Shown here one piece after another: positions 22,667 to 38,036 of a stretch of DNA of 53,515 bases (its first letter is position 1; each line of letters opens with the position of its first letter). A model generated the notes under the pieces. That model was not told where the DNA came from. It did no database searches and was given only the letters and a program-made list of their open reading frames with translations. This DNA comes from a virus. The stretch is taken from the IMG/VR virus record IMGVR_UViG_3300036828_000767, positions 1 through 53,515 of that record; one strand, 5' to 3'. A program made the position numbers and the translations under genes.

Positions 22667-22942
22667 TTATTCGCTCCGGGTGCTGGTCCTGCTGCGCGCG
22701 CCACGCTGGTCAGCGCGATGCGGGTTGGCCGGTACCGGGTCGTTCTCCGATTCCAGTTCGGCGGCCGGTTCGGGCCTGGCCACGTCGTAGTGCACCCGCA
22801 GCGGCTCGAACAGGGCCTGGTGGTCACGGAGAATCGGATGCCCGGCGGCGACGATAGTCACCCCGGCGGTCAGGAAAATCGGCTGCCCGCCGAAGTCGAA
22901 GTTGGCCGACTCCTTGGCGACGTAAAAATCTGGTGCTGCCAT
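22667..22942 (-). CDS. Small head-region protein, unknown
   Basis: A 91-residue protein: APDFYVAKESANFDFGGQPI, then FLTAGVTIVAAGHPILRDHQ, LFEPLRVHYDVARPEPAAE and a charged end. Proteins of this kind (a small beta domain with V.AGHP....P..F.P) often lie after the capsid gene in actinophages. It begins right after the FkbM-type methyltransferase gene stop. Confidence 0.65.
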   Translation of the reverse strand: MAAPDFYVAKESANFDFGGQPIFLTAGVTIVAAGHPILRDHQALFEPLRVHYDVARPEPAAELESENDPVPANPHRADQRGARSRTSTRSE

Positions 22943-23647
22943 TTAGTCCCTCCTGGGTATGGCGCGGAGCCAGCCATGCTGATGCCACATGTCACTACCT
23001 TCAGGGTAATGCGGGTGGCGTACAGTTTCCACATCGTGGCCGCTGGCGGTGAGCAGGGTTTCGCATTCTTCTTTCAGCCCTGGGGCGTGGAACTCTATCA
23101 GCCACTTCGTCCCGCATGCGGCCATGAGCATCTGACCGCCGCGGAGAACCGCCGCTTCGTGGCCTTCGGTGTCGATGACCACCAGGTCCGGGTCGCCGAT
23201 GTCATCGGCGAGAGTGTCGAGGGTGGTGCACGGCACCGCGTGCAGTTTCGCCTCACCCCAGTCCGGCAGCGACCACTCCATCCCGTCGGTGCCGGGGGTG
23301 ACCCATTCCCCCTTGCTGATAGCCATGGGTACTTCAGCGAGCTGCACCGTGCCGACATGGTCGGAGACAGCGACATTCATCAGCAGCGCCCACGGGATAT
23401 GCGCTTCACGTCTTTGGTCTTCCAGGTCAGGTTCAGCCCACGCATGGAACCGCTGCCGGAGGTCACCGTAGGAACCAGGTTCGGGTTCGCAGGCGATGAT
23501 GCCCCGGTACCCGAGGGCAGCGAACTGGGCGAAGTTTTCACCTTTCCTCGCGCCGATGTCGAACGCGAGGTCACCAATAAGGTCACGCCATAGGACCGGT
23601 TCGACGGAAGGCGGGTCAGATGGCACCAGAGGAGGCAGTTCAGGCAC
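22943..23647 (-). CDS. FkbM-family methyltransferase
   Basis: A 234-residue SAM-dependent methyltransferase, which in this family usually O-methylates sugars or related hydroxyls. Motif I is LAFDIGARKGENFAQFAALG; the acidic loop is IIACEPEPGSYGDL; motif IV region is DLVVIDTEGHEAAVLRGG, the FkbM hallmark. I chose the GTG at 23647, which follows GGAGGA by 5 bases and lies just inside the end of the previous gene; an ATG at 23812 would overlap that gene by 170 bases. As last enzyme of the sugar block it may cap a glycan. Confidence 0.85.
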   Translation of the reverse strand: MPELPPLVPSDPPSVEPVLWRDLIGDLAFDIGARKGENFAQFAALGYRGIIACEPEPGSYGDLRQRFHAWAEPDLEDQRREAHIPWALLMNVAVSDHVGTVQLAEVPMAISKGEWVTPGTDGMEWSLPDWGEAKLHAVPCTTLDTLADDIGDPDLVVIDTEGHEAAVLRGGQMLMAACGTKWLIEFHAPGLKEECETLLTASGHDVETVRHPHYPEGSDMWHQHGWLRAIPRRD

Positions 23648-24530
23648 TGATTCCTCCACGGACGGTGTCGAGCTGGTATTTGCCTGGTTCGCGGTGCGGG
23701 CGGAACGATTGCGCCTGGGAGAACGCAAACGACGTTTCGCTTGACGCCCAGCCTTCGAGGCGGCCGATGTTCTGCGACCTGGAAGCATCCGGCACCACGC
23801 ACAGCTTGTCATGGTTCGGCAGGATACGGGTCGCTATGTTCCAGTCCCAGCCAGAATCGAACCCCTTGGTGCCGGAAGTGCAATCCCAGTCCCAGTCCTT
23901 GGCGAACATGGGCCACCGGTCCCACCACGTACCCCAGCACCAGGCATTGAAGTACGGCGTAAGCCGCACCTGCCACTGGTCCGCGTCACCGTCATCAGCA
24001 GGCTCGTGTTTGTCCCACCCCTGCCCGCCAGGCGAATGAGCGCATACCGCAGCGACCTGCTCGTTGCTGGCGAACTCCGTTGCGGCCCAGGCGAAGTACT
24101 CCAGGATGTCGTCGGACACCACCACGTCTTCTTCGCCGAAAATCACAAACGCCGGTTCGGGGGACCAGTTCACCATGTCAGCGAACAAGGCGTCGCCCAT
24201 GTCGCCGATAGCCCTGTGCATGCCCATGTTCGGCACGGGGTCAGGGTGAACAATCACACCAGGGCGGTGCATCAGTTCGCTCTGCTGGAGGACGGCTGTC
24301 ATTTCCCGTTCCCGGTCGCTACGGCCCATCGCGACGTAGAACTCTTGCACTTCGCCGATACCCCGGGCTTGTTCCCACGATTTGACAGTTTCCCGCCAGT
24401 AGTAGGGACGCTTACAAGCGGTCGTGGCGACAGCCATGTCGGCTGGGGTCACCAGGATGCACCCTTCGGCACGTAGGCCCGCACCGTGCCGCAGCGGACC
24501 GGCAGGGGGTATCTCACGCGCCTTCCTCAT
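23640..24530 (-). CDS. Glycosyltransferase, GNT-I-like nucleotide-sugar transferase fold
   Basis: A 296-residue protein. VATTACKRPYYWRETVKSWE is the usual start of this GT-A group, FVIFGEEDVVVSDDILEYFA holds the acidic metal-binding motif (EED), and FNAWCWGTWWDRWPMFAKDW with FDSGWDWNIATRI near the C-terminus resembles the acceptor part of GNT-I/POMGNT-like enzymes. The start is uncertain: the ATG at 24530 overlaps the end of the gene before it, and the conserved part begins only about 25 residues later. Confidence 0.75.
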   Translation of the reverse strand: MRKAREIPPAGPLRHGAGLRAEGCILVTPADMAVATTACKRPYYWRETVKSWEQARGIGEVQEFYVAMGRSDREREMTAVLQQSELMHRPGVIVHPDPVPNMGMHRAIGDMGDALFADMVNWSPEPAFVIFGEEDVVVSDDILEYFAWAATEFASNEQVAAVCAHSPGGQGWDKHEPADDGDADQWQVRLTPYFNAWCWGTWWDRWPMFAKDWDWDCTSGTKGFDSGWDWNIATRILPNHDKLCVVPDASRSQNIGRLEGWASSETSFAFSQAQSFRPHREPGKYQLDTVRGGISA

Positions 24531-24693
24531 GCGCCGAATGGAACAGCCCGGTGCCGCACGCCACGCAAGCCGCCATGTTCATCGGGTCCGGCGTGAACGG
24601 GTGCTTCACCTCCTGCGCGTCCGCGGTGGTGCCGTCGATGCCGTACGCCTGACGCACCGGCTCACCGCGGTTCTCGAACTGCTGGTCAGTCAC
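24514..24693 (-). CDS. 59-residue protein with a CxxC pair
   Basis: GTG overlaps the stop of the previous gene (GTGA). It reads TDQQFENRGEPVRQAYGIDG, then KHPFTPDPMNMAACVACGTG and ends LFHSAHEEGA. CVACG and the following His suggest a zinc knuckle. Function unknown; such short Cys-pair proteins recur between the sugar genes. Confidence 0.6.
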   Translation of the reverse strand: MTDQQFENRGEPVRQAYGIDGTTADAQEVKHPFTPDPMNMAACVACGTGLFHSAHEEGA

Positions 24694-24902
24694 GACTGCC
24701 TCGCAATTGCGGCATTACCCCAGAACATGACTTCCTCCAGATGAGTGATGGCCAGGGACTTCTCCCGGCCTTCGGGAAGCATCGCGTTCAGGTTGTAGGC
24801 GAGCACCTTGCAGCCCTGCCTCACATCGTGATGCTCGTTGACCCGGAACTGGTCCGGCGGGGGATGATGGCCGAACCTGGCATCAAGATCGTCAGGGCTC
24901 AC
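24690..24902 (-). CDS. Probable Acb2/Tad1-type cyclic-nucleotide sponge (hairpin family)
   Basis: A 70-residue protein of two long helices: N-terminal DLDARFGHHPPPDQF, a first helix EHHDVRQGCKVLAYNLNAML and the conserved end PEGREKSLAITHLEEVMFWG + NAAIARQS. The block LPExREKSLAxTxLEEAMxWANAAIAR is, as far as I remember, the signature of a widespread phage family annotated as Acb2/Tad1 hairpin domain. Acb2 binds cGAMP-type and related cyclic nucleotides and blocks CBASS; Tad1 binds Thoeris gcADPR signals. Whether this member binds any signal is inferred. Its GTG start overlaps the preceding stop by 4 bases, and it is translated with the sugar genes. Confidence 0.62.
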   Translation of the reverse strand: MSPDDLDARFGHHPPPDQFRVNEHHDVRQGCKVLAYNLNAMLPEGREKSLAITHLEEVMFWGNAAIARQS

Positions 24903-25066
24903 TTGTGACCCTTCTTCTTCTCGTCCTTGGTGCCGTCAAGCTGGAACGGCACCGCGTACCCGCCAGCGGAATCGACATCCAGTGACATGACACGCATCTG
25001 CCCGTCACCGGTACCAGCGTCCTGCACCTCGACGATCTGCGGCTGCTCAGTCTTCTTGTCGGGCAT
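24899..25066 (-). CDS. 55-residue protein carrying a near-copy of a major capsid segment
   Basis: ATG after GGAGGAAGCA. Residues 29-44 read LDVDSAGGYAVPFQLD, while the phage's own capsid protein has LGVDSAGGFAVPFQLD (coding 35292-35339): 14 of 16 identical, and about 38 of 48 bases. The N-terminal half (KKTEQPQIVEVQDAGTGDGQ) is acidic and the C-terminus (KDEKKKGHK) is basic. It could be a small virion protein that keeps the capsid N-arm contact, or a decoy of the capsid. Function unknown. Confidence 0.7.
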   Translation of the reverse strand: MPDKKTEQPQIVEVQDAGTGDGQMRVMSLDVDSAGGYAVPFQLDGTKDEKKKGHK

Positions 25067-25075
25067 TGCTTCCTC

Positions 25076-25216
25076 CTATCGCGCGGGCCACCCGGCCTCG
25101 AACCCGGGGATACCCAACCGGAACAACCACGGCAGCGACCGGACACGCGGGTCATCCGCTGCCACCATCCCGAACGAGTTGCCGTTGCTGTACGCGCTGT
25201 TGCCATTAAGCAACAT
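25076..25216 (-). CDS. 46-residue protein, unknown
   Basis: The ATG at 25216 follows GGAAGG; upstream in-frame starts (to 25282) lie nearly in the previous gene. It reads LLNGNSAYSNGNSFGMVAAD, then DPRVRSLPWLFRLGIPGFEA. Asn/Ser-rich start and a short amphipathic end. No family recognised. Confidence 0.45.
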   Translation of the reverse strand: MLLNGNSAYSNGNSFGMVAADDPRVRSLPWLFRLGIPGFEAGWPAR

Positions 25217-25288
25217 GACTACCTTCCTTGAACGTAGTGACCTGCCGTTATGTCGAGCGGCTAACATTTCGGCCATGGACAAGCCTTT

Positions 25289-26053
25289 TCATACACTACC
25301 AGGCCGTGGTCTGAACCAGTTTGGCGGACAACGCCGCTCCCGGACGTAGCGCGGCCACGTCCCGTCCACATCCACGGCCACCATCTGTACATCATGATGC
25401 TCACCGTGGTAGTACCCGTGCCCCCCCGCGAGGATGCGCCGTTCCAGGTCCGGCAACTCCCGGTGACATGACACTGTCAGCTTCTCGTTCTGCGCCTGCG
25501 GACCACCCAACCAGGACAAATGCCACCCACCGTCCGCAAGCAGCCGGTACGCAGGCCGCCCATCACGAACCGCAGACAGCTTCTGCCCCTTGATGTACTT
25601 CGCCAGGCCGATCACCGAACCAGGCATCGGCGCCGGGTACAGCCAGTCCACCGCACTATGACAGGTCCGCATCAGCAGCCCCGCCGGCGGCCCGCCGTAC
25701 GTCATCAGGTGCTGCGCCGGGATTTCGTCCGCGTCGGCGATCAGCACCAGGTCGTCGTCGGCGGCGAGCTTGTCAATGGTGGCGCACATGGCGTCCCGCT
25801 GGGCATGTTCACGCACCCACGGGTCCTCTGCGTCGGGCAGCTCCGGCACCACCACGTGGAATATCTTGTCCCACCACCGGTTGAACCGGCCTTCGTTCGC
25901 CGCGTAGAAAAGCGGCTTGTCCCGGCCGTGGAAATCCTGCAACGACTCGACAAGGACATGGTTCACTTCCACGCCGTATGCCTCGAACTCCTCGAACCGG
26001 CACTGGGCCATATCCAGCTCGTTGCGGAACATGAACGTGTCCCAGATCATCAT
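25289..26053 (-). CDS. Glycosyltransferase family 17-like
   Basis: A 254-residue protein. The opening WDTFMFRNELDMAQCRFEEF is the hallmark of GT17 (the MGAT3-type beta-1,4-GlcNAc transferase family), and AADDDLVLIADADEIPA holds the metal-binding DAD motif. FYAANEGRFNRWWDKIFHVV and GGWHLSWLGG fit the same family. In bacteria and phages the substrate is unknown; it would act on a nucleotide sugar in the cytoplasm. The start overlaps the stop of the previous transferase by 4 bases. Confidence 0.88.
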   Translation of the reverse strand: MMIWDTFMFRNELDMAQCRFEEFEAYGVEVNHVLVESLQDFHGRDKPLFYAANEGRFNRWWDKIFHVVVPELPDAEDPWVREHAQRDAMCATIDKLAADDDLVLIADADEIPAQHLMTYGGPPAGLLMRTCHSAVDWLYPAPMPGSVIGLAKYIKGQKLSAVRDGRPAYRLLADGGWHLSWLGGPQAQNEKLTVSCHRELPDLERRILAGGHGYYHGEHHDVQMVAVDVDGTWPRYVRERRCPPNWFRPRPGSV

Positions 26054-26766
26054 GAGATGTGCAGCCCCTCTTTAAACGCCGCCCATGTTTGCGCCGTGTA
26101 AGGCTCACCGCCGAGTTTCTCAATATCAGCGTTCAGCCCGTCCGCGCAATACGTGTCAAACGCGATCCTGTCTTTCCATGCCAGCCCCACGGACCTGGCG
26201 TACGTGTCGTCGTACTCGGCACCACCGCCGCCGGTGAAGTGCAGGTGCGGTATCTCCACGTCATGCAGGTATGTGATGCCGCATGCCTTCCCCCAGGCCA
26301 TCCACACCGGGTCCAGCCACATGTGCCTGATCGACGGCACAGCCAGGTAACCGAGCGTGGTGACAGTGTCCGCGCTGGTGAACAAGTGGCAGCACAGCGA
26401 CCCGGGCTCGCGCGGGTACTTGTCGTTGCCGAACGCGAACCGGGTCTCCTCCAGGGCATCTATCAGGTGAACATCCCACCCGTTTGTCACCGGCACGTTA
26501 TCGTCGCCGATATGGCCAAGGAACTTGTACCCCTCCGCGGCGGCGTCCTCAGCGAGCCGGTTGATCCACGGGCCTACGTTGGTGAGCGAATCACTGACTG
26601 TGTATTCAACCCCGTCCAGCCGGGGATAGCTGGCCTCATCATCAGCGTCCAGGCCAACGATGAGCCTGGTGAAGCCCTGGCACGTGCCCTGCATCGCGTC
26701 ATGCAGGCGCTGAATGTTCCGCGGGCGCCCACGTGACGGGACGATCACCGCCAGGTCTTTACGCAT
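26050..26766 (-). CDS. GT2-like glycosyltransferase
   Basis: A 238-residue GT-A-type protein: LAVIVPSRGRPRNIQRLHDA, then FTRLIVGLDADDEASY, KFLGHIGDDNVPVTNGWDVH with GDD as the probable metal-binding motif, and a C-terminal HFTGGGGAEYDDTYAR. It is clearly related to the transferase at 30778, which has the same PSRGRP start and a FGDDHLPRTVGWD segment, so the two may be old paralogues. Overlaps the next gene upstream by 8 bases. Confidence 0.82.
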   Translation of the reverse strand: MRKDLAVIVPSRGRPRNIQRLHDAMQGTCQGFTRLIVGLDADDEASYPRLDGVEYTVSDSLTNVGPWINRLAEDAAAEGYKFLGHIGDDNVPVTNGWDVHLIDALEETRFAFGNDKYPREPGSLCCHLFTSADTVTTLGYLAVPSIRHMWLDPVWMAWGKACGITYLHDVEIPHLHFTGGGGAEYDDTYARSVGLAWKDRIAFDTYCADGLNADIEKLGGEPYTAQTWAAFKEGLHIS

Positions 26767-27691
26767 CCCTGATCACCTGATCCCAGTCTTCCACTTCGGG
26801 GAACGTGCCCCGCATCACAACATGAGCGCCGTTGGCGAAGCTTTTCACCTGCATCGAGTCGCTGGACGGATGCACCTGGCTCATACCCATCAAGCCTGCT
26901 ATTTCCAGGGCCTGCCTGTACTCCCGGTCTTTATTACCGCCGATCACGACGAACTCCACCTCGCCTGGTTCATCAGCAAGAAGCACCAGGCGGGACAGGT
27001 CCGCGGCCAGGGTCGGCTCAGCTCCGGTGACCACCGACACCAGCCGCGGGTTCGCAGGGACACCTTCCAGCAGCGCAGCGAGCTTCGCCAGGTCTTTCGC
27101 CCGTTCCCGTTCCATCTCCACCGCGTGGAAAGTAGCCACATTGGCAAGCTGATCCCGTGCCAGGGCTGTGGCGTCGCGGACCTTCCGGTGGCTTACCGTC
27201 ACCGGGATGTGCCTGGTCCGGCGGAGCTGCTCACCCAGGGCAATGATCCACATGTCGATGGAGTGGTCAAGGCTGAGCCGCCCCAGGCATTCGAACCAGG
27301 CCGCCGGGATCACCGGGAAACAATTCATCCCAAGCGCCTCGGGCACATAAGACCACAGCACCGAGAACGGCAGCCCGCGGATGTAAGCGTCCCAGCCGTG
27401 TGTCCGCATGACCGCGTCGTCGTTCCAGATGAAAAGCCAGTCACCCGTTGCGAACTCGGCCAGGTCGTTGTAATACCGGTGCAGTCCGCCGTACCCGTAA
27501 CGCTCAGGCGACACGTGGACGCGGATGCTCGGCGTGCCCGGGGGGTAGGGAATGTGGTCGTCGGGGTCAACGGCGATGCAGATTTCCACGTCGTCGGGCC
27601 GGGTGGCGTTGTTAAGCAGGGATTCGACACTGTGCCGCATCATCGTGTCCCTGCTGCGGGTGGGCAGCAGAACCGAAATCTTCTCGGTCAC
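26759..27691 (-). CDS. GT2-like glycosyltransferase
   Basis: A 310-residue protein. ISVLLPTRSRDTMMRHSVES and IAVDPDDH give the nucleotide-binding half; ATGDWLFIWNDDAVMRTHGW holds NDD in place of DXD. The second half (about 200-310) is unlike a usual GT2: VSVVTGAEPTLAADLSRLVL and VEFVVIGGNKDREYRQALEI suggest an extra small alpha/beta domain. Start overlaps the end of the cupin gene by 4 bases. Acceptor unknown. Confidence 0.82.
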   Translation of the reverse strand: MTEKISVLLPTRSRDTMMRHSVESLLNNATRPDDVEICIAVDPDDHIPYPPGTPSIRVHVSPERYGYGGLHRYYNDLAEFATGDWLFIWNDDAVMRTHGWDAYIRGLPFSVLWSYVPEALGMNCFPVIPAAWFECLGRLSLDHSIDMWIIALGEQLRRTRHIPVTVSHRKVRDATALARDQLANVATFHAVEMERERAKDLAKLAALLEGVPANPRLVSVVTGAEPTLAADLSRLVLLADEPGEVEFVVIGGNKDREYRQALEIAGLMGMSQVHPSSDSMQVKSFANGAHVVMRGTFPEVEDWDQVIRDA

Positions 27692-28083
27692 GGCGCCAGA
27701 AGCGGCACATCAAGCCGCTCGGTGTCTGTTTCGTAGTCCTCCCCGGTGCGCGGCCCCCTGGTGAACACCAGCACCGTGGTGTCTTCCAGAGCCCGCCAGG
27801 CATGCGCGATACCAGCGGGCTCGCAGAGCATCGTGCCGGCGCCGAATTCCACGGGGACGCCGTCAACGGCGACGTGCTTACCAGCGACGAGCATCCGGCC
27901 GGACAGGATGTACGTCCACTGGGTTGTGCGTTTGTGAATGTGGTTGCCGCGTACCGCGCCCGCACGGGTGAAGATGTGCGTCACGCCGTCGATGATGGTG
28001 CTGCCGAACATGTTCAGCAGCGGCTGCAACGGCAAGTCCTGGATGATGCCACGGCGGTCTTCGAACCGGTCAGCCACGTGCAA
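27688..28083 (-). CDS. Cupin, sugar epimerase/isomerase-like
   Basis: A 131-residue single cupin domain. GNHIHKRTTQWTYILSGRML is cupin motif 1 with two His, CEPAGIAHAWRAL is motif 2, and the end RGPRTGEDYETDTERLD is typical of cupins in polysaccharide clusters related to RmlC/FdtA-type epimerases and ketoisomerases. Such enzymes act on NDP-4-keto-6-deoxysugars. It overlaps its neighbours on both sides, next to the C-methyltransferase and the SDR, with which it could form one pathway. Confidence 0.78.
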   Translation of the reverse strand: MHVADRFEDRRGIIQDLPLQPLLNMFGSTIIDGVTHIFTRAGAVRGNHIHKRTTQWTYILSGRMLVAGKHVAVDGVPVEFGAGTMLCEPAGIAHAWRALEDTTVLVFTRGPRTGEDYETDTERLDVPLLAP

Positions 28084-29200
28084 CCTCCGCGATCTTCGGT
28101 TCGGGCAGCGGGATGATGAACTTCCCCTGGTAGCCCTTGCCGGTCAGGGACTTCATGATGTCGCCGGCGATATGCCAGGAAAAGATTAGCGCGTACGGAG
28201 GCTGGTCTGCGATGAGCTTCGCCTCATCCACAACGGGAATCTGAGTTCCCGGCATCGTCTTGCCGATTTTCTCGCTGCCGGGAACCTCGCACACGCAGGA
28301 CACATAACCAGAAATCCCGGCGAAGTGGATCAGCGGCGTCGCCCTTGTGGTCGCCCCGATGCCGTAGATGCCGCCGGAAAGCCCGCCGAGCAGCCTTCGC
28401 AGTTCCAGGCCGGCCTGGTTCGCCCGGTTGGTCAGTCCGCCGAACTGTGGTGCCTTCGCGGCGAACACCCGCATCGACCCGCCGTGGGTGTCGATATGCT
28501 CCACGGCCTTTACTTGAAGCCCGCCGTTTTCCAGCAGCCGGGTGAGCGTCCCAGGCGTGTAGTACCGCAAGTGCTCGTGGTAAACCGTGTCGATCTGCAA
28601 GCCGTGCTCCACGGCGCTGAAGTCGTGGCACTCGGTGACGAACACGCCCGTGGGGGACAGCAAATCAGCGACGCCGCAGACAAAATCCACCGGTTCCGGG
28701 ACATGCGCCAGAACATTCGTCGCGGTCACCACCTCCGCCTGGCCGTAATCCTGAACGATCCGCCACGCCAGGTACGAGGTGAAAAAGTCCTGGTAGACGT
28801 TCATGCCTTTGGACTGGCATTTCAGTGCCTGCCTGGTGGGCTCCACCGCCACCTTGGTGCACGCCTGCGGGAACGCTTCCAGCAGCGTCCCGTCGTTCGC
28901 GCCGATATCCACCACCAGGTCGTTTTCCCGCAGCAGCCACGACACCTTGTTCGCCAAGCCCTCAAAATGCCACCGCAGCGCCTTAGTGTTCCCCGAAGCG
29001 TACGGGTGATCCGGCGGGAACAGTTTCTCCTGCGGCACCGCGTAAGACAGTTGCACCAGGAAACAGTTCGTGCACCGCCGCAGCTTCAACGGGAACACTT
29101 CACTGCTGCCGTAAGCCTCAGCGACAGGCTGATCACCCATGTCAAGCAGGACCACGAAGTTATGCCCGCCGCACAGCGCGCAGGACCGAATCTCAGCCAT
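28070..29200 (-). CDS. Sugar C-methyltransferase (TylCIII/NovU-like)
   Basis: A 376-residue protein with the three-part build of NDP-sugar C-methyltransferases. N-terminal zinc site: CALCGGHNF ... RRCTNCFLVQL (residues about 7-60). SAM domain: DLVVDIGANDGTLLEAFPQA, then VFVTECHDFSAVEHGLQIDT with YHEHLRYYTP, the conserved H-Y-E-H loop of this family. C-terminal domain: GATTRATPLIHFAGI. The reaction would put a methyl on C3 of a 4-keto-6-deoxysugar. The ATG at 29200 overlaps the preceding stop (ATGGCTGA). Confidence 0.88.
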   Translation of the reverse strand: MAEIRSCALCGGHNFVVLLDMGDQPVAEAYGSSEVFPLKLRRCTNCFLVQLSYAVPQEKLFPPDHPYASGNTKALRWHFEGLANKVSWLLRENDLVVDIGANDGTLLEAFPQACTKVAVEPTRQALKCQSKGMNVYQDFFTSYLAWRIVQDYGQAEVVTATNVLAHVPEPVDFVCGVADLLSPTGVFVTECHDFSAVEHGLQIDTVYHEHLRYYTPGTLTRLLENGGLQVKAVEHIDTHGGSMRVFAAKAPQFGGLTNRANQAGLELRRLLGGLSGGIYGIGATTRATPLIHFAGISGYVSCVCEVPGSEKIGKTMPGTQIPVVDEAKLIADQPPYALIFSWHIAGDIMKSLTGKGYQGKFIIPLPEPKIAEVARG

Positions 29201-30155
29201 TGTTCTGGTACCACGTAACAGTCGCCGACAGGCCGTCCTTGAACGGCGTCCTGACAAGGTTCCCGATGCCGGCGAGCTGGTCCATCTTCGTGGTGTCGGG
29301 CAACCGCTTCGGCGGGGAGCCCTTAGGCAGCGTCCCGGGGATCACCTTGACCTGCTTCCCGTAGCAGGCCGCTACCTCGTGGGCGACCTGCTCGATGCTC
29401 CGCTCCACCATGGTGCCGACGTGGTACACGCCGGTCTGCCCCTTCTCCAGCAGCAACGCCAACTGCTCCACACAATCGCTGATGTAGCAGAAAGACCTGG
29501 TTTCCAGGCCGGTGCCCTGGATGGGGAACGGCAGAATCGCCGCGCTGGGCTGCTCCTTAACAAGCTGGTTCATCCGCAGGCAGAACTCCGGGATGACATG
29601 CTCACGGCCCATGTCGGGACCGTAAATGTTATGCGGGCGGGCGATCACGGCCCGGTCCAGCACCCCGGTGCGCTGCCACGCCAGCGTCACCAGCTCGGAG
29701 GCGATCTTTCCGCCGCCGTAGGAGTACCGGGGGTTCAGCACATCCGGGACTGTCAGCGGCACATCCTCACCGGTAGGTACTTCCGGTGCCACCTGGTACG
29801 CCTCGCTGCTGGACACCAAGAGGAAATCACCGCAGCCCCACTGTTCGCACGCCGACATCAGGTTCAGGACGCCCCGCAGCGCCACGTCCAGTACCTGCCT
29901 GGGCTCCGCGTAGAACGTCTGCGTGCCTTGCAGGTACGCCAGGTGAATAACAGCGTCCTGACCCTGCACAGCCCGGTGGACCTTCATCTCGTCGCGGATG
30001 TCGCCAGGGATCAGGTTCACCGGGGTGTTCCGCAGCCGTTCAGCCTTCCCCCTGGACAGGTCATCCAGCACGGTGACCTCATGGCCGAGGCCGTACAGGT
30101 GCTTGCAAAGACTGCTGCCGATGAACCCGGCGCCGCCGGTGACTAGAACCCTCAT
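29193..30155 (-). CDS. NAD-dependent sugar epimerase/dehydratase (extended SDR)
   Basis: A 320-residue extended SDR. RVLVTGGAGFIGSSLCKHLY is the NAD-binding GxxGxxG; DLSRGK and PGDIRD follow; SSSEAYQVAP supplies the catalytic Ser, YSYGGGKIASE the Tyr-x3-Lys; RPHNIYGPDM and SFCYISDCVEQL are usual substrate-side motifs. It probably epimerises or reduces an NDP-sugar, and together with the C-methyltransferase and cupin could finish a branched deoxysugar from host dTDP-4-keto-6-deoxyglucose. Confidence 0.9.
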   Translation of the reverse strand: MRVLVTGGAGFIGSSLCKHLYGLGHEVTVLDDLSRGKAERLRNTPVNLIPGDIRDEMKVHRAVQGQDAVIHLAYLQGTQTFYAEPRQVLDVALRGVLNLMSACEQWGCGDFLLVSSSEAYQVAPEVPTGEDVPLTVPDVLNPRYSYGGGKIASELVTLAWQRTGVLDRAVIARPHNIYGPDMGREHVIPEFCLRMNQLVKEQPSAAILPFPIQGTGLETRSFCYISDCVEQLALLLEKGQTGVYHVGTMVERSIEQVAHEVAACYGKQVKVIPGTLPKGSPPKRLPDTTKMDQLAGIGNLVRTPFKDGLSATVTWYQNNG

Positions 30156-30781
30156 TACGCCTCCACGTAGCGGAAGTGCGGACTGTCTATTTCCACCCGG
30201 CCGGGCTTGGGCATGTTCGGCAGCATCCCTGCCTGGACGCTGTCACTGCTCGAATGCCGGTAGTAGTACAGAACCCTATCCAGGTAAACCTCCGCCTTCA
30301 CGTGCGGCCTGACACCGCCCCGCCAGGTGAAATCCTCCGGCCAACCCTGCGAAAAGTCACCTATTCGCGCCAGATCGGCACGTACCGGCTGCACGTGGGT
30401 CAGGTCCCGGTACAACACGCCAGCGGCCCAATCGTCACGCGGGGTGTTGACGATACTGTTCAGCACCCTCACCGGCAGGCCGCCGTCCCGGGTGTAGATC
30501 GTCTCGAATCCCACCACGTCAGGACCAGCTTCGAGGGCAGCCAAAATGACCGGCACATAGTCGTCGGCTACAGCGTCGTCGTCATCTATGAAACTGACGT
30601 ACTCGCCGCGGGCCGCATCCAGCAGCACCTGCCGGTACACGCCCACCGGCTTCTCGCCGTTGTTGTGCAGTGCGACTATCTCCACGTCATCGCCGGTTAT
30701 CTGCGACAGAACCATCCCAACCAACCCAAGGAACCGGGACTGCCGGTAACCAATCGTCGGGATCAGGATGCTCCACTTCAC
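30155..30781 (-). CDS. GT2 glycosyltransferase
   Basis: A 208-residue minimal GT2: WSILIPTIGYRQSRFLGLVG, ARGEYVSFIDDDDAVADDYV with the DDD metal motif, and QGWPEDFTWRGGVRPHVKAE with the ED of the acceptor side. GTG at 30781 overlaps the previous stop (GTGA), which fixes the start. Acts on a nucleotide sugar; acceptor unknown. Confidence 0.85.
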   Translation of the reverse strand: MKWSILIPTIGYRQSRFLGLVGMVLSQITGDDVEIVALHNNGEKPVGVYRQVLLDAARGEYVSFIDDDDAVADDYVPVILAALEAGPDVVGFETIYTRDGGLPVRVLNSIVNTPRDDWAAGVLYRDLTHVQPVRADLARIGDFSQGWPEDFTWRGGVRPHVKAEVYLDRVLYYYRHSSSDSVQAGMLPNMPKPGRVEIDSPHFRYVEA

Positions 30782-31467
30782 CGCAGTGCCTTCACTGTCG
30801 CGACATCCGCCGCCATCCGGTGAGCCTGCCATTCCAGGTAGGCCCGGTAGTCCCGGTGGTCGGTGTGGAAGCCTCCGGCGTCGCCGTAGGTGGCATCCAT
30901 GGAGGCTTTGCCGGTGGTGTGGTGGAGGTGCTCAACTATCACGTCAGGGTTATACACCAGGCACCCGGCGGCGTGGCCCAGGTCTGACCACACGTTGTCC
31001 ACGCAGTAATGACCCAGGGCGGGCAGGCACATCCAGCCCAGCGCACGAACTATCTCCACACTGATCACCGGCGCTGTCGCCAGGCGTTTACCCATCGCCA
31101 GGTCATCCCCGTAAGCGATACCAGGCCCGCCGGTTTTCGACACCGACATCATCAGCTTCTGGTCCCACCCCACCGTGCGAGGCAGGTGATCGTCGCCGAA
31201 CGACGCAAAATGGGTGAACCCTTTATCCAGCGCGGCCAAGGCCAAGACGTTCGTCCACCCGGCCAGAGACTTCCGTGGCCCCACCGTGTACGTCACGTCC
31301 GCCCCACCAGCGGCATCCATGTACACCGGCAGGTACACGTCGTCATCGTCGAGGCCAACCGCCACCGTGGTGTCCTTCGCCCTGGTGACACGCAAAGCGT
31401 CGATCATCCTTGCCAGCCCCGCCGGCCTGCCTCTGGACGGGACAATCACCAGCAGCCGGTACAGCAT
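30778..31467 (-). CDS. GT2-like glycosyltransferase
   Basis: A 229-residue protein starting at the ATG at 31467: LYRLLVIVPSRGRPAGLARM, VAVGLDDDDVYLP, FTHFASFGDDHLPRTVGWDQ and a C-terminal YNPDVIVEHLHHTTGKASMD. It shares its outline with the transferase at 26050. The frame is open upstream to 31626, but that stretch belongs to the small gene at 31472 in another frame. Confidence 0.82.
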   Translation of the reverse strand: MLYRLLVIVPSRGRPAGLARMIDALRVTRAKDTTVAVGLDDDDVYLPVYMDAAGGADVTYTVGPRKSLAGWTNVLALAALDKGFTHFASFGDDHLPRTVGWDQKLMMSVSKTGGPGIAYGDDLAMGKRLATAPVISVEIVRALGWMCLPALGHYCVDNVWSDLGHAAGCLVYNPDVIVEHLHHTTGKASMDATYGDAGGFHTDHRDYRAYLEWQAHRMAADVATVKALR

Positions 31468-31471
31468 CTGG

Positions 31472-31651
31472 TCAGTCTTCTTCGCCGGAGGTGACACGCT
31501 CTGCCTCCGGGCACGGGGAAACGTGGTGAATGGACCGGATTTGACTACGCCAGAGTTTGACAATGGGCGCTCCGCAGCCGGTACAGACAAGCAAACCATC
31601 GGCGTTCCTGACCACCCTGACACCATCGGCAGGTGTCACCGGCCCGCTCAC
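31472..31651 (-). CDS. 59-residue zinc-knuckle-like protein
   Basis: GTG overlaps the stop of the GT4 gene (GTGA). It reads SGPVTPADGVRVVRNADGLL, VCTGCGAPIVKLW, then IHHVSPCPEAERV. One CxxC, a His pair and another Cys could hold one zinc. Unknown; expressed with the sugar genes. Confidence 0.62.
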   Translation of the reverse strand: MSGPVTPADGVRVVRNADGLLVCTGCGAPIVKLWRSQIRSIHHVSPCPEAERVTSGEED

Positions 31652-32847
31652 AGCTTCGCCTCTATGGCGGCAAGAGCCGGAATCCAGTACTTCTCCAGCA
31701 CCGTATCCACGTCATACTCCTGAGCGTGCGCCCGGGAAGCGGCACACTTCGCCCGATACGGCCCGTCTCGTTTGTACGCCTTCTCGAACGCTTTGACAAG
31801 CTCAGCAATGAGCGGCTTGTCCCACCAGGAGTCATGACCAGGCCGCCAGTACGGTTCCGACTTCACCTCGTACGCGACCGGGCCGACCACCTCGTGCATG
31901 GCGCTGCCCCACCCGCCGGCGCCGTGCTTCCCCGGCCCGTACTGGTCCTCCCCAGTGCCCCTGGTGGACACCACCGGAACACCGCATGACAGGGCCTGCA
32001 ACGCGGGCAAGCCAAACCCTTCGGCGAGAGACGCACCAGCGTAAAGGTCAGCGATGCCGTAGTTGGACCGGAGCGTTTCCGCACGGATCATCCCGGCGGT
32101 CAGCAGGTACTGGTCGGTCCAGGCGATCCCGTCGAGGCAGCCCATCCGCGCTGCGGTGTACGGCAAGTCCAGCCCGCTGTTTGTCGTTTGCAACGTGTGG
32201 CACATCAGCAGGGCGTCAGGGTGCTTGACACGGAACCGGGAGAACGCCGCGAACAGTTCCGCGTAGCCTTTCCGGTCATGGGACAGGTTCGCCGCGTCGG
32301 TGAAGATGATGAACCGGTCGTCGAGACCGAGGGCTTCCCTGGCGGCTTTCTTATCCGCCGGCGGCACCCACAGCGTCTTGGTGTCGATGCCGTGCGGCAC
32401 ATAGGTGGAGCTGTGACCAACTTCGGCGAGCTGCTTCTGCGCGAAATGTGTTAGTGCCAGCAGGTGCGTCTTCACGCCGGCGTTTTTGGCGTTTTCCAGT
32501 TCGTTGCTGTCACGGGTGGACAGCGGCGAACAGTCCACCGGAATCCAGAACGCCACGTGACGGCCGCGGAGTGTTTCCTTCGGCAAGGCCCACTGATCCA
32601 TGAGCGCTATCACAAGGTCGGCTTTGAAATGTTCGGCGTGCTTCCCGATGATGTCGCCGCCGTAGTTATGCTGCCCGCCAGGGTAGACGGGGATGCCTTC
32701 CCATCTGGTCATCCCTCCTAGATGACCGTAAAACGACGAGATCGCCACCTCGTGACCGAGTTCAACCAGTTTCCTAGTCCATACGCCTGTCTGTACCCCG
32801 TATCCGGTGCCTGCCCAGGCGGCATTACTATGCCACAAGATACGCAT
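31648..32847 (-). CDS. GT4-type glycosyltransferase (GT-B fold)
   Basis: A 399-residue retaining transferase of the GT4 kind. N-half: RILWHSNAAWAGTGYGVQTG; C-half: DRFIIFTDAANLSHDRKGYA, ADLYAGASLAEGFGLPALQA with the E-x7-E motif (EGFGLPALQA), and SCGVPVVSTRGTGEDQ. These are the classical nucleotide-sugar-binding elements. The start ATG is in TAATG, overlapping the stop of the short gene before it. As first long gene of the block it probably starts or extends the glycan. Confidence 0.9.
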   Translation of the reverse strand: MRILWHSNAAWAGTGYGVQTGVWTRKLVELGHEVAISSFYGHLGGMTRWEGIPVYPGGQHNYGGDIIGKHAEHFKADLVIALMDQWALPKETLRGRHVAFWIPVDCSPLSTRDSNELENAKNAGVKTHLLALTHFAQKQLAEVGHSSTYVPHGIDTKTLWVPPADKKAAREALGLDDRFIIFTDAANLSHDRKGYAELFAAFSRFRVKHPDALLMCHTLQTTNSGLDLPYTAARMGCLDGIAWTDQYLLTAGMIRAETLRSNYGIADLYAGASLAEGFGLPALQALSCGVPVVSTRGTGEDQYGPGKHGAGGWGSAMHEVVGPVAYEVKSEPYWRPGHDSWWDKPLIAELVKAFEKAYKRDGPYRAKCAASRAHAQEYDVDTVLEKYWIPALAAIEAKL

Positions 32848-33026
32848 TACGAACAATCAGGGCAGTTGCGGCCCACCCGGTCAATACGCTGGCGGCGTAT
32901 CTCGGCGACACGGATAAACACCGAAACGTTGGACCGCCAGGACTCGTTGCTGCGGCCCACGTGCCCGCAAGAGAACTGCGACAGCGGCGCGTTGACCGCA
33001 ACACTGCGACTGCTACCTTCGGTCAT
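32847..33026 (-). CDS. 59-residue zinc-knuckle-like protein, first gene of the sugar block
   Basis: Reads TEGSSRSVAVNAPLSQFSCG, HVGRSNESWRSNVSVFIR, ending VGRNCPDCS. Cys-x-His in the middle and a CxxC at the very end suggest a zinc site. AAAAGG lies before the ATG. Its stop is shared with the ATG of the GT4 gene. Confidence 0.62.
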   Translation of the reverse strand: MTEGSSRSVAVNAPLSQFSCGHVGRSNESWRSNVSVFIRVAEIRRQRIDRVGRNCPDCS

Positions 33027-34463: not shown

Positions 34464-37400
34464 CTACAGGGTGCTGAGCAGGCGGAATGCGTTGGGCACG
34501 AGCACCCGGCTGTTGTTAAACCAAATCGCGAGAATCCCTCGTTGGCCGACCGGGAACCGGTTGGTCGAGCCGAACAGGTGCGGGATCAGCTCGATGCCCA
34601 TGCCGATCCGGTCCACGATCAGGAACTGGCTGAAGTCGCCCTGGAGCAGGACGAGGGAGCCAGACGAAATCGCCGTGGTCATCGTGGACAGTTCGTACGC
34701 CGGGTAGCCGTTGAACGTCGCCGGAGTACCAGCGGAAGGCCGCACCCACGAGTCGAACGCGGCCGAGGCGAGAGCCTGGAAGAGCTGACGGAACCGGTTG
34801 AAGGTCGTCTTCGACGCCAGGTAGGCGCTCTGCTGACGGAACCGGGGAGCCATCTGGTTTTCCAGGTTGTACAGGTCACCAATCGCCAGGGTCGCCGTAC
34901 CCGCCGTGTTCACCAGCGAAGCGGGGCTGGAGTCATGCAGCGTCTGGATGACACCGTTGGCGTTCGGGGCGGTGCCGTTGCCGAGGGCGAACGAAGTTGC
35001 TTCCTCAACGTCCTTGGCATCCATCAGCAGGTTCGTCATCTGGGACCGCAGCGCGCCCCAGGAGACGTCCAGCTCGATGTTGAACGGCACGAAACCCTGC
35101 ACCCGCGTGGTGCGGACGTTCGGCTGCACCAGCAGCGGGTCACCGGTCGCGGCTTCAGTTCCTTCAGCGACACGGTTGACAACCACACCAGCGGACGTCA
35201 CGCCGTCCCATTCCTTGCCGGTGATCTGCTCCACCCGGGAAATCTGGCGAAGCGGGTTGATGGCCCCATTTGAGGACAAAATCACCGTTGGGTCGAGCTG
35301 GAACGGTACGGCGAAACCGCCTGCGGAGTCCACACCGAGCTGAAGGGCTCGCTGCTCCTCAGTGTTCAGGCCATTCACGCTCAGCGACCCAAGCATCTTG
35401 CCGAACGCCCGGTCGTAAAGCGGCGAACCGGTGACCAGGACACGCCGGGCCAGGGAGCCGCCCTCGTCATCCACCCGGTCAAGCAGGTTCGCGACCGTCT
35501 CCTGGCAGTCCTCGCGGGACTTCGGACCGGAATACCGGACCGCGTCCAGGGCACGCATCGCGTGCTCCCGGTACAGGGTGGGCACCTCGTCGAAGTTGTG
35601 CGCCTTGTGCCGGATCGCCGTCAGGTCGAAAATCTGCTCCGGCTTCATCGGGTTGTAGAACATCGGCCCGGTGCCGAGACGGTCCTTGACATAGGCGGGC
35701 GCGTTCCTGACCGTGGTGCCGTAACCACCCTGGCCCCCGCCGGGAGTGAACCCAACACCGGGGAAACCGATGCCAGCGTTGTCGATGCCCTCCATGGCAC
35801 CCTCGTCGCCGCTCTCAACGATGGTCCGCAGGTACTGGGCGCGAGCCGTGGCGTCCTTAATGGCCCGCTGATGCTCGATCAGTTCCTGCTGAAGGGAAGT
35901 CCACTCGGTTCGGGTGTCGGCCGGAAGTTCGGCACCCATGTTTTCGGTGTCGATCTCTTGCAGCCGGTGCTGGACTTCCATGAGCCGCGCCTGCCGCTGG
36001 TCGATGGACATAAGTCCTTCCATCGTCTCGCTCTCCTTGATAGTGCTCGGGGGTGCCGGGTGCGGCTGCGGCCCTGGCTTAACGGCGGCCCCAGTGCTTG
36101 CGTCTGCGTTACGCGGGACGGCGGCGGCTGGCTTCCTGCCGGAACTGCTAGAACTCTTTGTATCACCCTTTGCCGCCTGAATGGCGCGTTCATGCGCCTC
36201 CAGGTGCGCCCTTGCTGCCGTCGCGTTCATCAAACCCTGAGCGCCGGCAAGGCGGCCGAGTGCATTACTGACACCATGCGCGTTCGGCGGGTCGCCTGGC
36301 TTGTAGTGGTGCGGGAGACCCCACGTGGCTTGCAACTTCGGGTCGCCCTTACGGCGGCCCGCGCAAACCGCGGCGTAAAACTTGGCCGGGTCATTCGACG
36401 CCGAACCCGCAGCCCACACCTTCCCCGCATCCCACGCGGAAGTGTCCACACTGCCATGGCTGTCATCGGCAGGTTCGGCGGCATCAGGTGCGGCACGCCC
36501 TTCCTTGTCCTTCATCGGCTTCCCCGGTACCGGCTTCTTCTGCTTCCCATCGGCCGTCCAATAATCATGGTCGGTGTCGGTGGAAGCCTTCGAGTCGTCG
36601 TCGCCGTCCTTATCGGGGTCAAACTTGCCAGCCTTCGACGCGGCGACACCAGTCGGCGTGCCCATATCGTCGGCGTCCGGCTCAGTTTCCTTCTTCTTCT
36701 TGCCCTTACCAGCGCGGCCTGAAGTACCGGGGTCGTGGTCGTGGTCGTGCAGCGCGTCGCCCTCGTGGTCGTGTTCATGGCCGTGCATTCCGTCGCCGTT
36801 GTCGTCGGGGCCGTCATAAGCGTTGTGGTTGTGGGAATGCGAACCGGTATGGGTGCCATGCGTGGCCACCGTAGTGTCACGCGCCGGTACTGGGCTTGCC
36901 ATGTCATCGGCGGCCGGTGCCGCCGTGGCCCGCTCAGCTTCCACGTCGTCGTCCCTGGCTGAATTGGAAGTCATTCCTGCGGCTCCTGTCACCACCGCCG
37001 GGTACGCCTTATTGTCCGCCTGCGCGGACGCACCAGCGTCTTCGATATGCGCCCGCAGGTGCGCCTTCGCCTTCTGCTTGCTGTCGGTGGGGAACCCTTC
37101 GATGGAATCAGCCTTCAGAAGCGCGTTCCGGGAGGCGATAAGGTTCGCCGCGCCGGGGGTGCCATCGTCGTTGACGTGGTGGTGCGGCAGGTAACCATGC
37201 TCGGGCATGTAGTTGCCGCCGTTTCCCGCACCAGCGGCCTGATCGGCAAGGGCGTACACCGACTGCATGTGGTCCCAGGACGTGGGGAACTTCAACTTGC
37301 CGATTTCGGCCTTGGGGTCGTAGTCGGTCGTGGCCACGTCGGTGTGGTGAACCGGCACACCGGTCCGGCTCTGCCCGTTCAAATTGACGATCTCCATTGC

Positions 37401-38036
37401 CTGCTCAGGCGAGATGCCCATAGCCGCTAGTTCCTTCGCCCGGACCCCCATGATTTCCGCTGTGACAAACGCGGGGATCGGCGTCGGCCCGTACTCGATC
37501 AGGGCGATTTCCTGCCGGGTCACCAACGCCAGGTCGCCGTTGCGGTCAGGCATGTACTGCCCGCGGCCCTTATCCGGCGAAGACTTAACGAATACGCCGG
37601 TGTAGCTCATGCCCCGCAACGACTGAGACTTGATCGCCTCCAGAATCCTGTCGTTCTCCGGGCCTGGGTCGAACCGGGTGACGGTGTACAGTCCCCGCTG
37701 GTCCGGTTTCATCTCCAGCGGCTTGCCGAGTGGCACCGACCACATGTCCGACGGTGTGCCATCGAGGGACTTGGCGTGGTTGTACACGGAGAAAATCTGG
37801 TCGGCGCGGTCGGCGAGGGAACGGTTAAAAGAAGCCGGGTCGTTCTGCTCGTTGTAGTGCCCGTCCTGGTCTACGATCTCCGTCGGCGTGTTAAACACTG
37901 CCGCGTAGGCGATCACGTCACGGCCGGTGCCGCCCTTACGGATGTGGATGTCGTCGAAGACGTGAGCGCGGGTGACGGTGACAGAACGGTCGCCGTCCAG
38001 CGCGCGGCGTACCCGGCGTGCACTGTCAGTGCTCAT
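34464..38036 (-). CDS. Fused prohead protease - linker - HK97-type major capsid protein
   Basis: A 1190-residue polyprotein. Residues about 25-200 are an S78/U35-type prohead protease (AYAAVFNTPTEIVDQDGHYN; VYNHAKSLDG with H87; SLRGMSYTGVF with S144). Then comes a region with KAKAHLRAHIEDAG, an extremely His/Asp-rich stretch (about 393-440, HSHNHN, HGHEHDHEG), Lys/Asp-rich linkers and a SNALGRLAGAQGLMNATAAR segment. From residue 672 the capsid begins (SIDQRQARLMEVQHRLQEID), with the N-arm LGVDSAGGFAVPFQLD and the HK97 fold to the end (MTNLLMDAKDVEEATSFALG; FDSWVRPSAGTPATFNGYPA). AAGGAG with 9 bases to ATG 36023 allows a separate 519-residue capsid start. Confidence 0.9.
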   Translation of the reverse strand: MSTDSARRVRRALDGDRSVTVTRAHVFDDIHIRKGGTGRDVIAYAAVFNTPTEIVDQDGHYNEQNDPASFNRSLADRADQIFSVYNHAKSLDGTPSDMWSVPLGKPLEMKPDQRGLYTVTRFDPGPENDRILEAIKSQSLRGMSYTGVFVKSSPDKGRGQYMPDRNGDLALVTRQEIALIEYGPTPIPAFVTAEIMGVRAKELAAMGISPEQAMEIVNLNGQSRTGVPVHHTDVATTDYDPKAEIGKLKFPTSWDHMQSVYALADQAAGAGNGGNYMPEHGYLPHHHVNDDGTPGAANLIASRNALLKADSIEGFPTDSKQKAKAHLRAHIEDAGASAQADNKAYPAVVTGAAGMTSNSARDDDVEAERATAAPAADDMASPVPARDTTVATHGTHTGSHSHNHNAYDGPDDNGDGMHGHEHDHEGDALHDHDHDPGTSGRAGKGKKKKETEPDADDMGTPTGVAASKAGKFDPDKDGDDDSKASTDTDHDYWTADGKQKKPVPGKPMKDKEGRAAPDAAEPADDSHGSVDTSAWDAGKVWAAGSASNDPAKFYAAVCAGRRKGDPKLQATWGLPHHYKPGDPPNAHGVSNALGRLAGAQGLMNATAARAHLEAHERAIQAAKGDTKSSSSSGRKPAAAVPRNADASTGAAVKPGPQPHPAPPSTIKESETMEGLMSIDQRQARLMEVQHRLQEIDTENMGAELPADTRTEWTSLQQELIEHQRAIKDATARAQYLRTIVESGDEGAMEGIDNAGIGFPGVGFTPGGGQGGYGTTVRNAPAYVKDRLGTGPMFYNPMKPEQIFDLTAIRHKAHNFDEVPTLYREHAMRALDAVRYSGPKSREDCQETVANLLDRVDDEGGSLARRVLVTGSPLYDRAFGKMLGSLSVNGLNTEEQRALQLGVDSAGGFAVPFQLDPTVILSSNGAINPLRQISRVEQITGKEWDGVTSAGVVVNRVAEGTEAATGDPLLVQPNVRTTRVQGFVPFNIELDVSWGALRSQMTNLLMDAKDVEEATSFALGNGTAPNANGVIQTLHDSSPASLVNTAGTATLAIGDLYNLENQMAPRFRQQSAYLASKTTFNRFRQLFQALASAAFDSWVRPSAGTPATFNGYPAYELSTMTTAISSGSLVLLQGDFSQFLIVDRIGMGIELIPHLFGSTNRFPVGQRGILAIWFNNSRVLVPNAFRLLSTL
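36023..36038 (-). promoter_or_regulatory. Internal ribosome-binding site and start for a free capsid protein
   Basis: AAGGAG (minus strand, 36038-36033), 9 bases, then an in-frame ATG at residue 672 of the fusion, exactly at the border of linker and capsid. Confidence 0.55.

What the first reader, a model, noticed from the sequence alone, without database searches (positions are those of the whole stretch)
24690..24902. Probable Acb2/Tad1-type anti-CBASS/anti-Thoeris sponge hidden in the sugar block
The 70-residue protein ends in PEGREKSLAITHLEEVMFWG, the block I associate with the Acb2/Tad1 hairpin family. Acb2 and Tad1 bind cyclic-nucleotide or gcADPR signals and so disarm CBASS or Thoeris. 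Lying between glycosyltransferases and late genes would be a strange timing for an anti-defence protein, which raises the question whether it serves in the virion or for another ligand.
Basis: partly seen in the sequence, partly recalled or inferred. Interest (0 to 1): 0.6.

Follow-up and report, generated by a model that had tools for sequence, protein, structure and literature searches.

The report
Acb2-family cyclic-nucleotide sponge gene in phage
The 70-residue protein is a genuine member of the Acb2 family, small phage proteins that soak up the alarm molecules of bacterial antiviral systems; it is an ordinary member of a known family, notable mainly for its place in the virion-building gene block and for one unusual residue in the predicted binding pocket.

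Summary
The minus-strand ORF 24902-24690 (GTG start, 70 aa) matches Pfam PF24729 (Acb2/Tad1 hairpin) over the whole model (E = 2e-19, 69.9 bits, cut-off 27), about as well as T4 Acb2 itself (71.4 bits). Its model (pLDDT 93) shows a short N-terminal helix plus two long antiparallel helices, the Acb2 layout. It lacks Tad1's N-terminal beta domain, so the call narrows to Acb2. Hundreds of phage genomes, mostly actinophages, carry relatives, nearly all 'hypothetical protein'; a few have been annotated as Acb2. The late position is not peculiar: a sister contig keeps the gene in the same late operon, and relatives elsewhere repeatedly sit beside terminase, portal or capsid genes. Two details are of some interest. 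The position aligned with the base-stacking tyrosine (T4 Y8) is His, where 50 of 54 relatives have Phe or Tyr. The overlapping upstream gene carries a copy-like segment of the phage's own capsid N-arm. Most likely function: a hexameric sponge for cyclic oligonucleotides (CBASS, perhaps type III CRISPR), possibly favouring trinucleotides. No binding, hexamer or protection was tested.

The parts
24690..24902 (-). acb2-like gene, 70 aa (PF24729, phrog_1454); predicted helices 3-10, 21-41, 46-68
24696..24776 (-). conserved turn and second hairpin helix, residues 43-69 (PEGREKSLAITHLEEVMFWGNAAIARQ); P43, R46, K48, N63, A67 invariant in 54 relatives
24864..24869 (-). residues 12-13 (HH): H12 aligns with the base-stacking tyrosine T4 Y8 / p26 Y11 (F or Y in 50 of 54 relatives); H13 invariant
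24899..25066 (-). 55-aa gene directly upstream; residues 23-46 resemble residues 894-917 of the phage's own capsid fusion protein (67%); conserved in the sister contig
24514..24693 (-). 59-aa gene directly downstream with CxxC motif; no family; 88% identical in the sister contig
22667..32856 (-). glycosyltransferase / methyltransferase / epimerase block within the late operon, host of the gene
34464..38036 (-). prohead protease-major capsid fusion (PF04586 + PF05065), upstream in the same direction

Best explanation
The gene encodes an Acb2-type sponge. Shown here: membership of the Acb2/Tad1 hairpin family, the short-helix-plus-hairpin layout of Acb2, conservation of the family's invariant residues, and synteny in a sister phage. 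Inferred from the solved and tested family members: six copies assemble into a hexamer and bind cyclic oligonucleotides made by CBASS (and possibly the cyclic tri-adenylate of type III CRISPR) without cutting them, so that suicide effectors are not switched on before virions are finished. Because the base-stacking aromatic of the dinucleotide pocket is replaced by His, while the basic residue R28 that aligns with Acb2 K26 is kept, I expect altered or weaker dinucleotide binding and possibly a preference for trinucleotides bound at the trimer axis; this last step is a guess.
For: PF24729 full-length match at 69.9 bits, level with T4 Acb2 at 71.4 bits. Profile match to solved 'Acb2 homolog 43' 9ptq (E = 4.7e-10) and weak match to the Tad1 hairpin. 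AlphaFold2 model pLDDT 93 with helices 3-10, 21-41, 46-68, as described for Acb2 (one short N-terminal helix, two long antiparallel helices: PMC10419184; PMC12043709). R28, R in 53 of 54 relatives, lies 15-16 residues after the aromatic position, as K26 does in p26 and K23 in T4. Same gene at the same place in sister contig L076. T4 Y8A loses dinucleotide binding (PMC12657218). Actinophage genes have already been annotated as Acb2 (PMC13348362; PMC11953737).
Against: No ligand, hexamer or protection was tested, and the role of such proteins in mycobacteriophage infection is called unknown in PMC11953737. H12 departs from the aromatic consensus. Foldseek against PDB gave no significant match, and no Acb2 structure appeared in the second look, which is uninformative for a 70-residue two-helix hairpin. 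Direct hhalign with the single T4 sequence was weak (10% probability). The host and its defences are unknown.
Confidence: 0.8

Rival explanations
1. It is a Tad1-type anti-Thoeris sponge that binds gcADPR.
For: Shared PF24729 hairpin; RENACALTHVEEALMWMN of Tad1 resembles REKSLAITHLEEVMFWGN; Tad1 7uav and 8kbf appear in the VIA list (Z 4.6 and 4.5).
Against: Tad1 chains are 123-138 residues with an N-terminal beta sheet, and the gcADPR pocket involves conserved loops (PMC12043709); the window protein is 70 residues and all helical. The Z values are at the level of unrelated hairpins in the same list.
Confidence: 0.05
2. It has lost dinucleotide binding and acts only as a cyclic trinucleotide sponge, or for another nucleotide signal (a sub-case of the best explanation).
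For: H12 in place of F/Y at the stacking position; solved homolog 9ptq has Thr at the aligned position; variation between the two sister phages is concentrated in codons 1-41 (pN/pS 0.58 against 0.17).
Against: His can also stack; the basic R28 is kept; trinucleotide pocket residues could not be mapped here.
Confidence: 0.3
3. It serves the sugar block, for example by binding a nucleotide sugar for capsid glycosylation.
For: Conserved place among glycosyltransferases in two sister phages; Sparky and a few loci also have glycosyltransferases near.
Against: Most relatives are not in sugar blocks; neighbours differ from phage to phage.
Confidence: 0.03
4. It is a minor virion component carried in the late module.
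For: Late operon position here and terminase/portal/capsid neighbourhood in many relatives.
Against: The neighbourhood count has no proper background control, other relatives lie among DNA-metabolism genes, and no Acb2 is known to me as structural.
Confidence: 0.05

Closest known systems
Acb2 (T4 Vs.4; Pseudomonas phage p26 / PaMx33)
   Same: PF24729 match of equal strength; short N-helix plus hairpin; basic residue 15-16 after the stacking position
   Different: 70 against about 90 residues, shorter turn between the long helices; His at the stacking position; late operon instead of T4's vs region
Acb2 homolog 43 (PDB 9ptq)
   Same: nearest solved relative by sequence (profile E = 4.7e-10); shares F10, H13 and the LPEGREKS block
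   Different: Thr at position 12; no paper on it found in the library
phrog_1454 and actinophage genes annotated as cyclic oligonucleotide sequestration protein (e.g. phages Statler, Xandras)
   Same: phrog_1454 match E = 3.6e-26; several hundred phage records with relatives; some actinophage genes annotated as Acb2
   Different: about 56% identity to the best phage hits; that the annotated Statler and Xandras genes belong to phrog_1454 was not checked
Tad1
   Same: C-terminal hairpin of the same Pfam domain
   Different: Tad1 has an added N-terminal beta domain and binds gcADPR

Membership tests
Acb2 | Acb2/Tad1 hairpin domain (PF24729) above the curated cut-off | tested here: met
   69.9 bits against cut-off 27, positions 1-58 of 58; T4 Acb2 71.4 bits
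[quoted passage not shown]
   AlphaFold2 model, pLDDT 93
Acb2 | aromatic base-stacking residue of the dinucleotide pocket (T4 Y8 / p26 Y11) | tested here: inconclusive
   His at the aligned position; F or Y in 50 of 54 relatives; solved homolog 9ptq has Thr
Acb2 | basic residue corresponding to p26 K26 / T4 K23 (role of K26 from memory) | tested here: met
   R28, R in 53 of 54
Acb2 | homo-hexamer | not testable with these tools
   only monomer prediction available
Acb2 | binds cyclic oligonucleotides and protects phage from CBASS | not testable with these tools
   needs bench work
Tad1 | N-terminal antiparallel beta sheet before the hairpin | tested here: not met
   70-residue all-helical model; solved Tad1 chains 123-138 residues

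The most novel reading that the evidence does not exclude
The overlapping pair upstream-gene/acb2 is a two-part late counter-defence: a 55-residue protein carrying the N-arm segment of the phage's own capsid acts as a decoy for whatever capsid feature provokes CBASS, while the Acb2 sponge mops up the signal that still forms. Capsid mutations are reported to help acb2-deleted phage escape CBASS (PMC10419184).
Probability: 0.05. Interest if true: 0.75.

Novelty: new member of a known kind. Interest (0 to 1): 0.3.

Why it matters
It extends the Acb2 family among phages of actinobacteria, where hundreds of relatives are filed as hypothetical proteins and the role is untested, and it gives a natural variant at the stacking position of the dinucleotide pocket, with a sister protein that keeps Tyr, for testing ligand choice. 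The repeated place beside head and packaging genes raises a testable question about when sponges are made.

Tried and rejected
Foldseek and VIA-align on the monomer model: only generic hairpins, no use for a 70-residue protein. hhalign of the family alignment with the single T4 sequence: weak. Search for relatives of the downstream 59-aa gene: only the sister contig; of gene 17913-20183: none. Nearby terminase relatives (L067-L075) were too short or did not reach the acb2 position, so their lack of a match says nothing. Megablast of the sugar block against phages: no match. Two key papers on Acb2 and Tad1 binding (Cao et al. 2024, Li et al. 2024) are not held, so the trinucleotide pocket was not mapped. 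The neighbourhood count was considered as evidence of enrichment and rejected as proof: a window of 6 kb on each side covers much of a phage genome by chance and no background was computed. No paper on 9ptq was found.

Full report
What is there. The ORF is on the minus strand at 24902-24690, 70 aa with a GTG start, overlapping both neighbours by 4 bases. The window is part of a 117,515-base virus record. Terminase (42140-40515), portal (39792-38026) and a protease-capsid fusion (38036-34464) come first on the minus strand; then the sugar block (32856-22667: glycosyltransferases, epimerase, C- and FkbM-type methyltransferases), then the head-tail adaptor and tail genes. The best terminase relatives listed are in mycobacterial and Gordonia phages, and most of the 1182 matching records are actinophages, so an actinobacterial host is likely but not shown.

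Family. Pfam PF24729 (Acb2/Tad1 hairpin) matches at E = 2e-19 over the whole model and phrog_1454 at 3.6e-26. T4 Acb2, read from NC_000866 as Vs.4, scores 71.4 bits on the same model. tblastn finds 411 phage records, chiefly Mycobacterium, Paenibacillus, Gordonia and Streptomyces phages, with the best-ranked hits at about 56% identity and almost all listed ones annotated as hypothetical protein; 57 IMG/VR loci encode relatives. A profile of 54 members matches the solved 'Acb2 homolog 43' (9ptq) at 4.7e-10 and the Tad1 hairpin weakly. AlphaFold2 gives helices 3-10, 21-41 and 46-68 at pLDDT 93, the Acb2 layout described in PMC10419184 and PMC12043709. There is no Tad1 beta domain.

Pocket. Pfam places T4 G7-Y8 on window G11-H12, and phmmer aligns T4 Y8 with Y11 of p26. 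Y8A is reported to disrupt dinucleotide binding by T4 Acb2 (PMC12657218). In 54 members this position is F 34, Y 16, H 2, C 1, S 1; the window protein has H. R28 (R in 53 of 54) stands 15-16 residues later, matching the spacing to K26 of p26 (K26's role is from memory). F10, H13, P43, R46, K48, N63 and A67 are invariant.

Sister phage. L076 carries capsid fusion, glycosyltransferases, GT17, the 55-aa gene, acb2, the 59-aa gene, then an added methyltransferase-like ORF and the rest of the block. Between the two phages acb2 is 65% identical; in the seven genes compared, the others range from 70% (GT17) to 87%. pN/pS for acb2 is 0.45, with 0.58 over codons 1-41 and 0.17 over codons 42-70; the 55-aa gene has 0.48 and GT17 0.37, so acb2 is not the only gene with a high ratio. 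Two sequences are too few to claim positive selection.

Position. In annotated phages, relatives lie just upstream of terminase genes (Ibantik, Krueger), between lysin B and holin (prophi91-3), two genes before a minor tail protein (Mimi), near glycosyltransferases (Sparky), or among DNA-metabolism genes (Anon, DatBoi, Sephiroth). Among 45 non-redundant IMG/VR loci, by my count from phmmer clusters with representatives named by PHROGs (with tallies in 67 and 68), about 27 have a terminase, portal or major head gene within 6 kb and about 30 if tail genes are added. Gene calls were made with a home-made scorer, and no background rate was computed, so this shows recurrence, not enrichment.

Neighbour. 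Residues 23-46 of the 55-aa upstream gene share 67% identity with residues 894-917 of the capsid fusion, spanning the start of the Phage_capsid domain at 906. The best hit among phages is a 'major capsid and protease fusion protein'. What this small protein does is open.

Verdict. A new member of a known family, correctly spotted. Sponge function is likely by homology; ligand, hexamer and protection remain untested.

Noticed in passing
24899-25066 (-): 55-aa gene with a segment resembling the N-arm of the phage's own capsid protein (67% over 24 aa, 67% at DNA level over the aligned 72 bases); pS to the sister copy is only 0.15 against 0.36-0.58 in the other genes compared.
   Followed up: partly
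34464-38036 (-): Prohead protease and major capsid protein fused in one 1190-aa ORF with a long middle part; such fusions are annotated in Rhodococcus phages Shagrat and Madraxi.
   Followed up: partly
L076:9471-10028: Sister contig has an extra methyltransferase-like ORF between the 59-aa gene and gene 23640, absent from the window.
   Followed up: no
22667-32856 (-): Large sugar block (glycosyltransferases, epimerase, C- and FkbM-type methyltransferases) between capsid and head-tail genes, suggesting virion glycosylation.
   Followed up: no
L053:7569-9989: Large ORF ending at the acb2 homolog start matches an ADP-ribosyltransferase PHROG and a head maturation protease PHROG.
   Followed up: no
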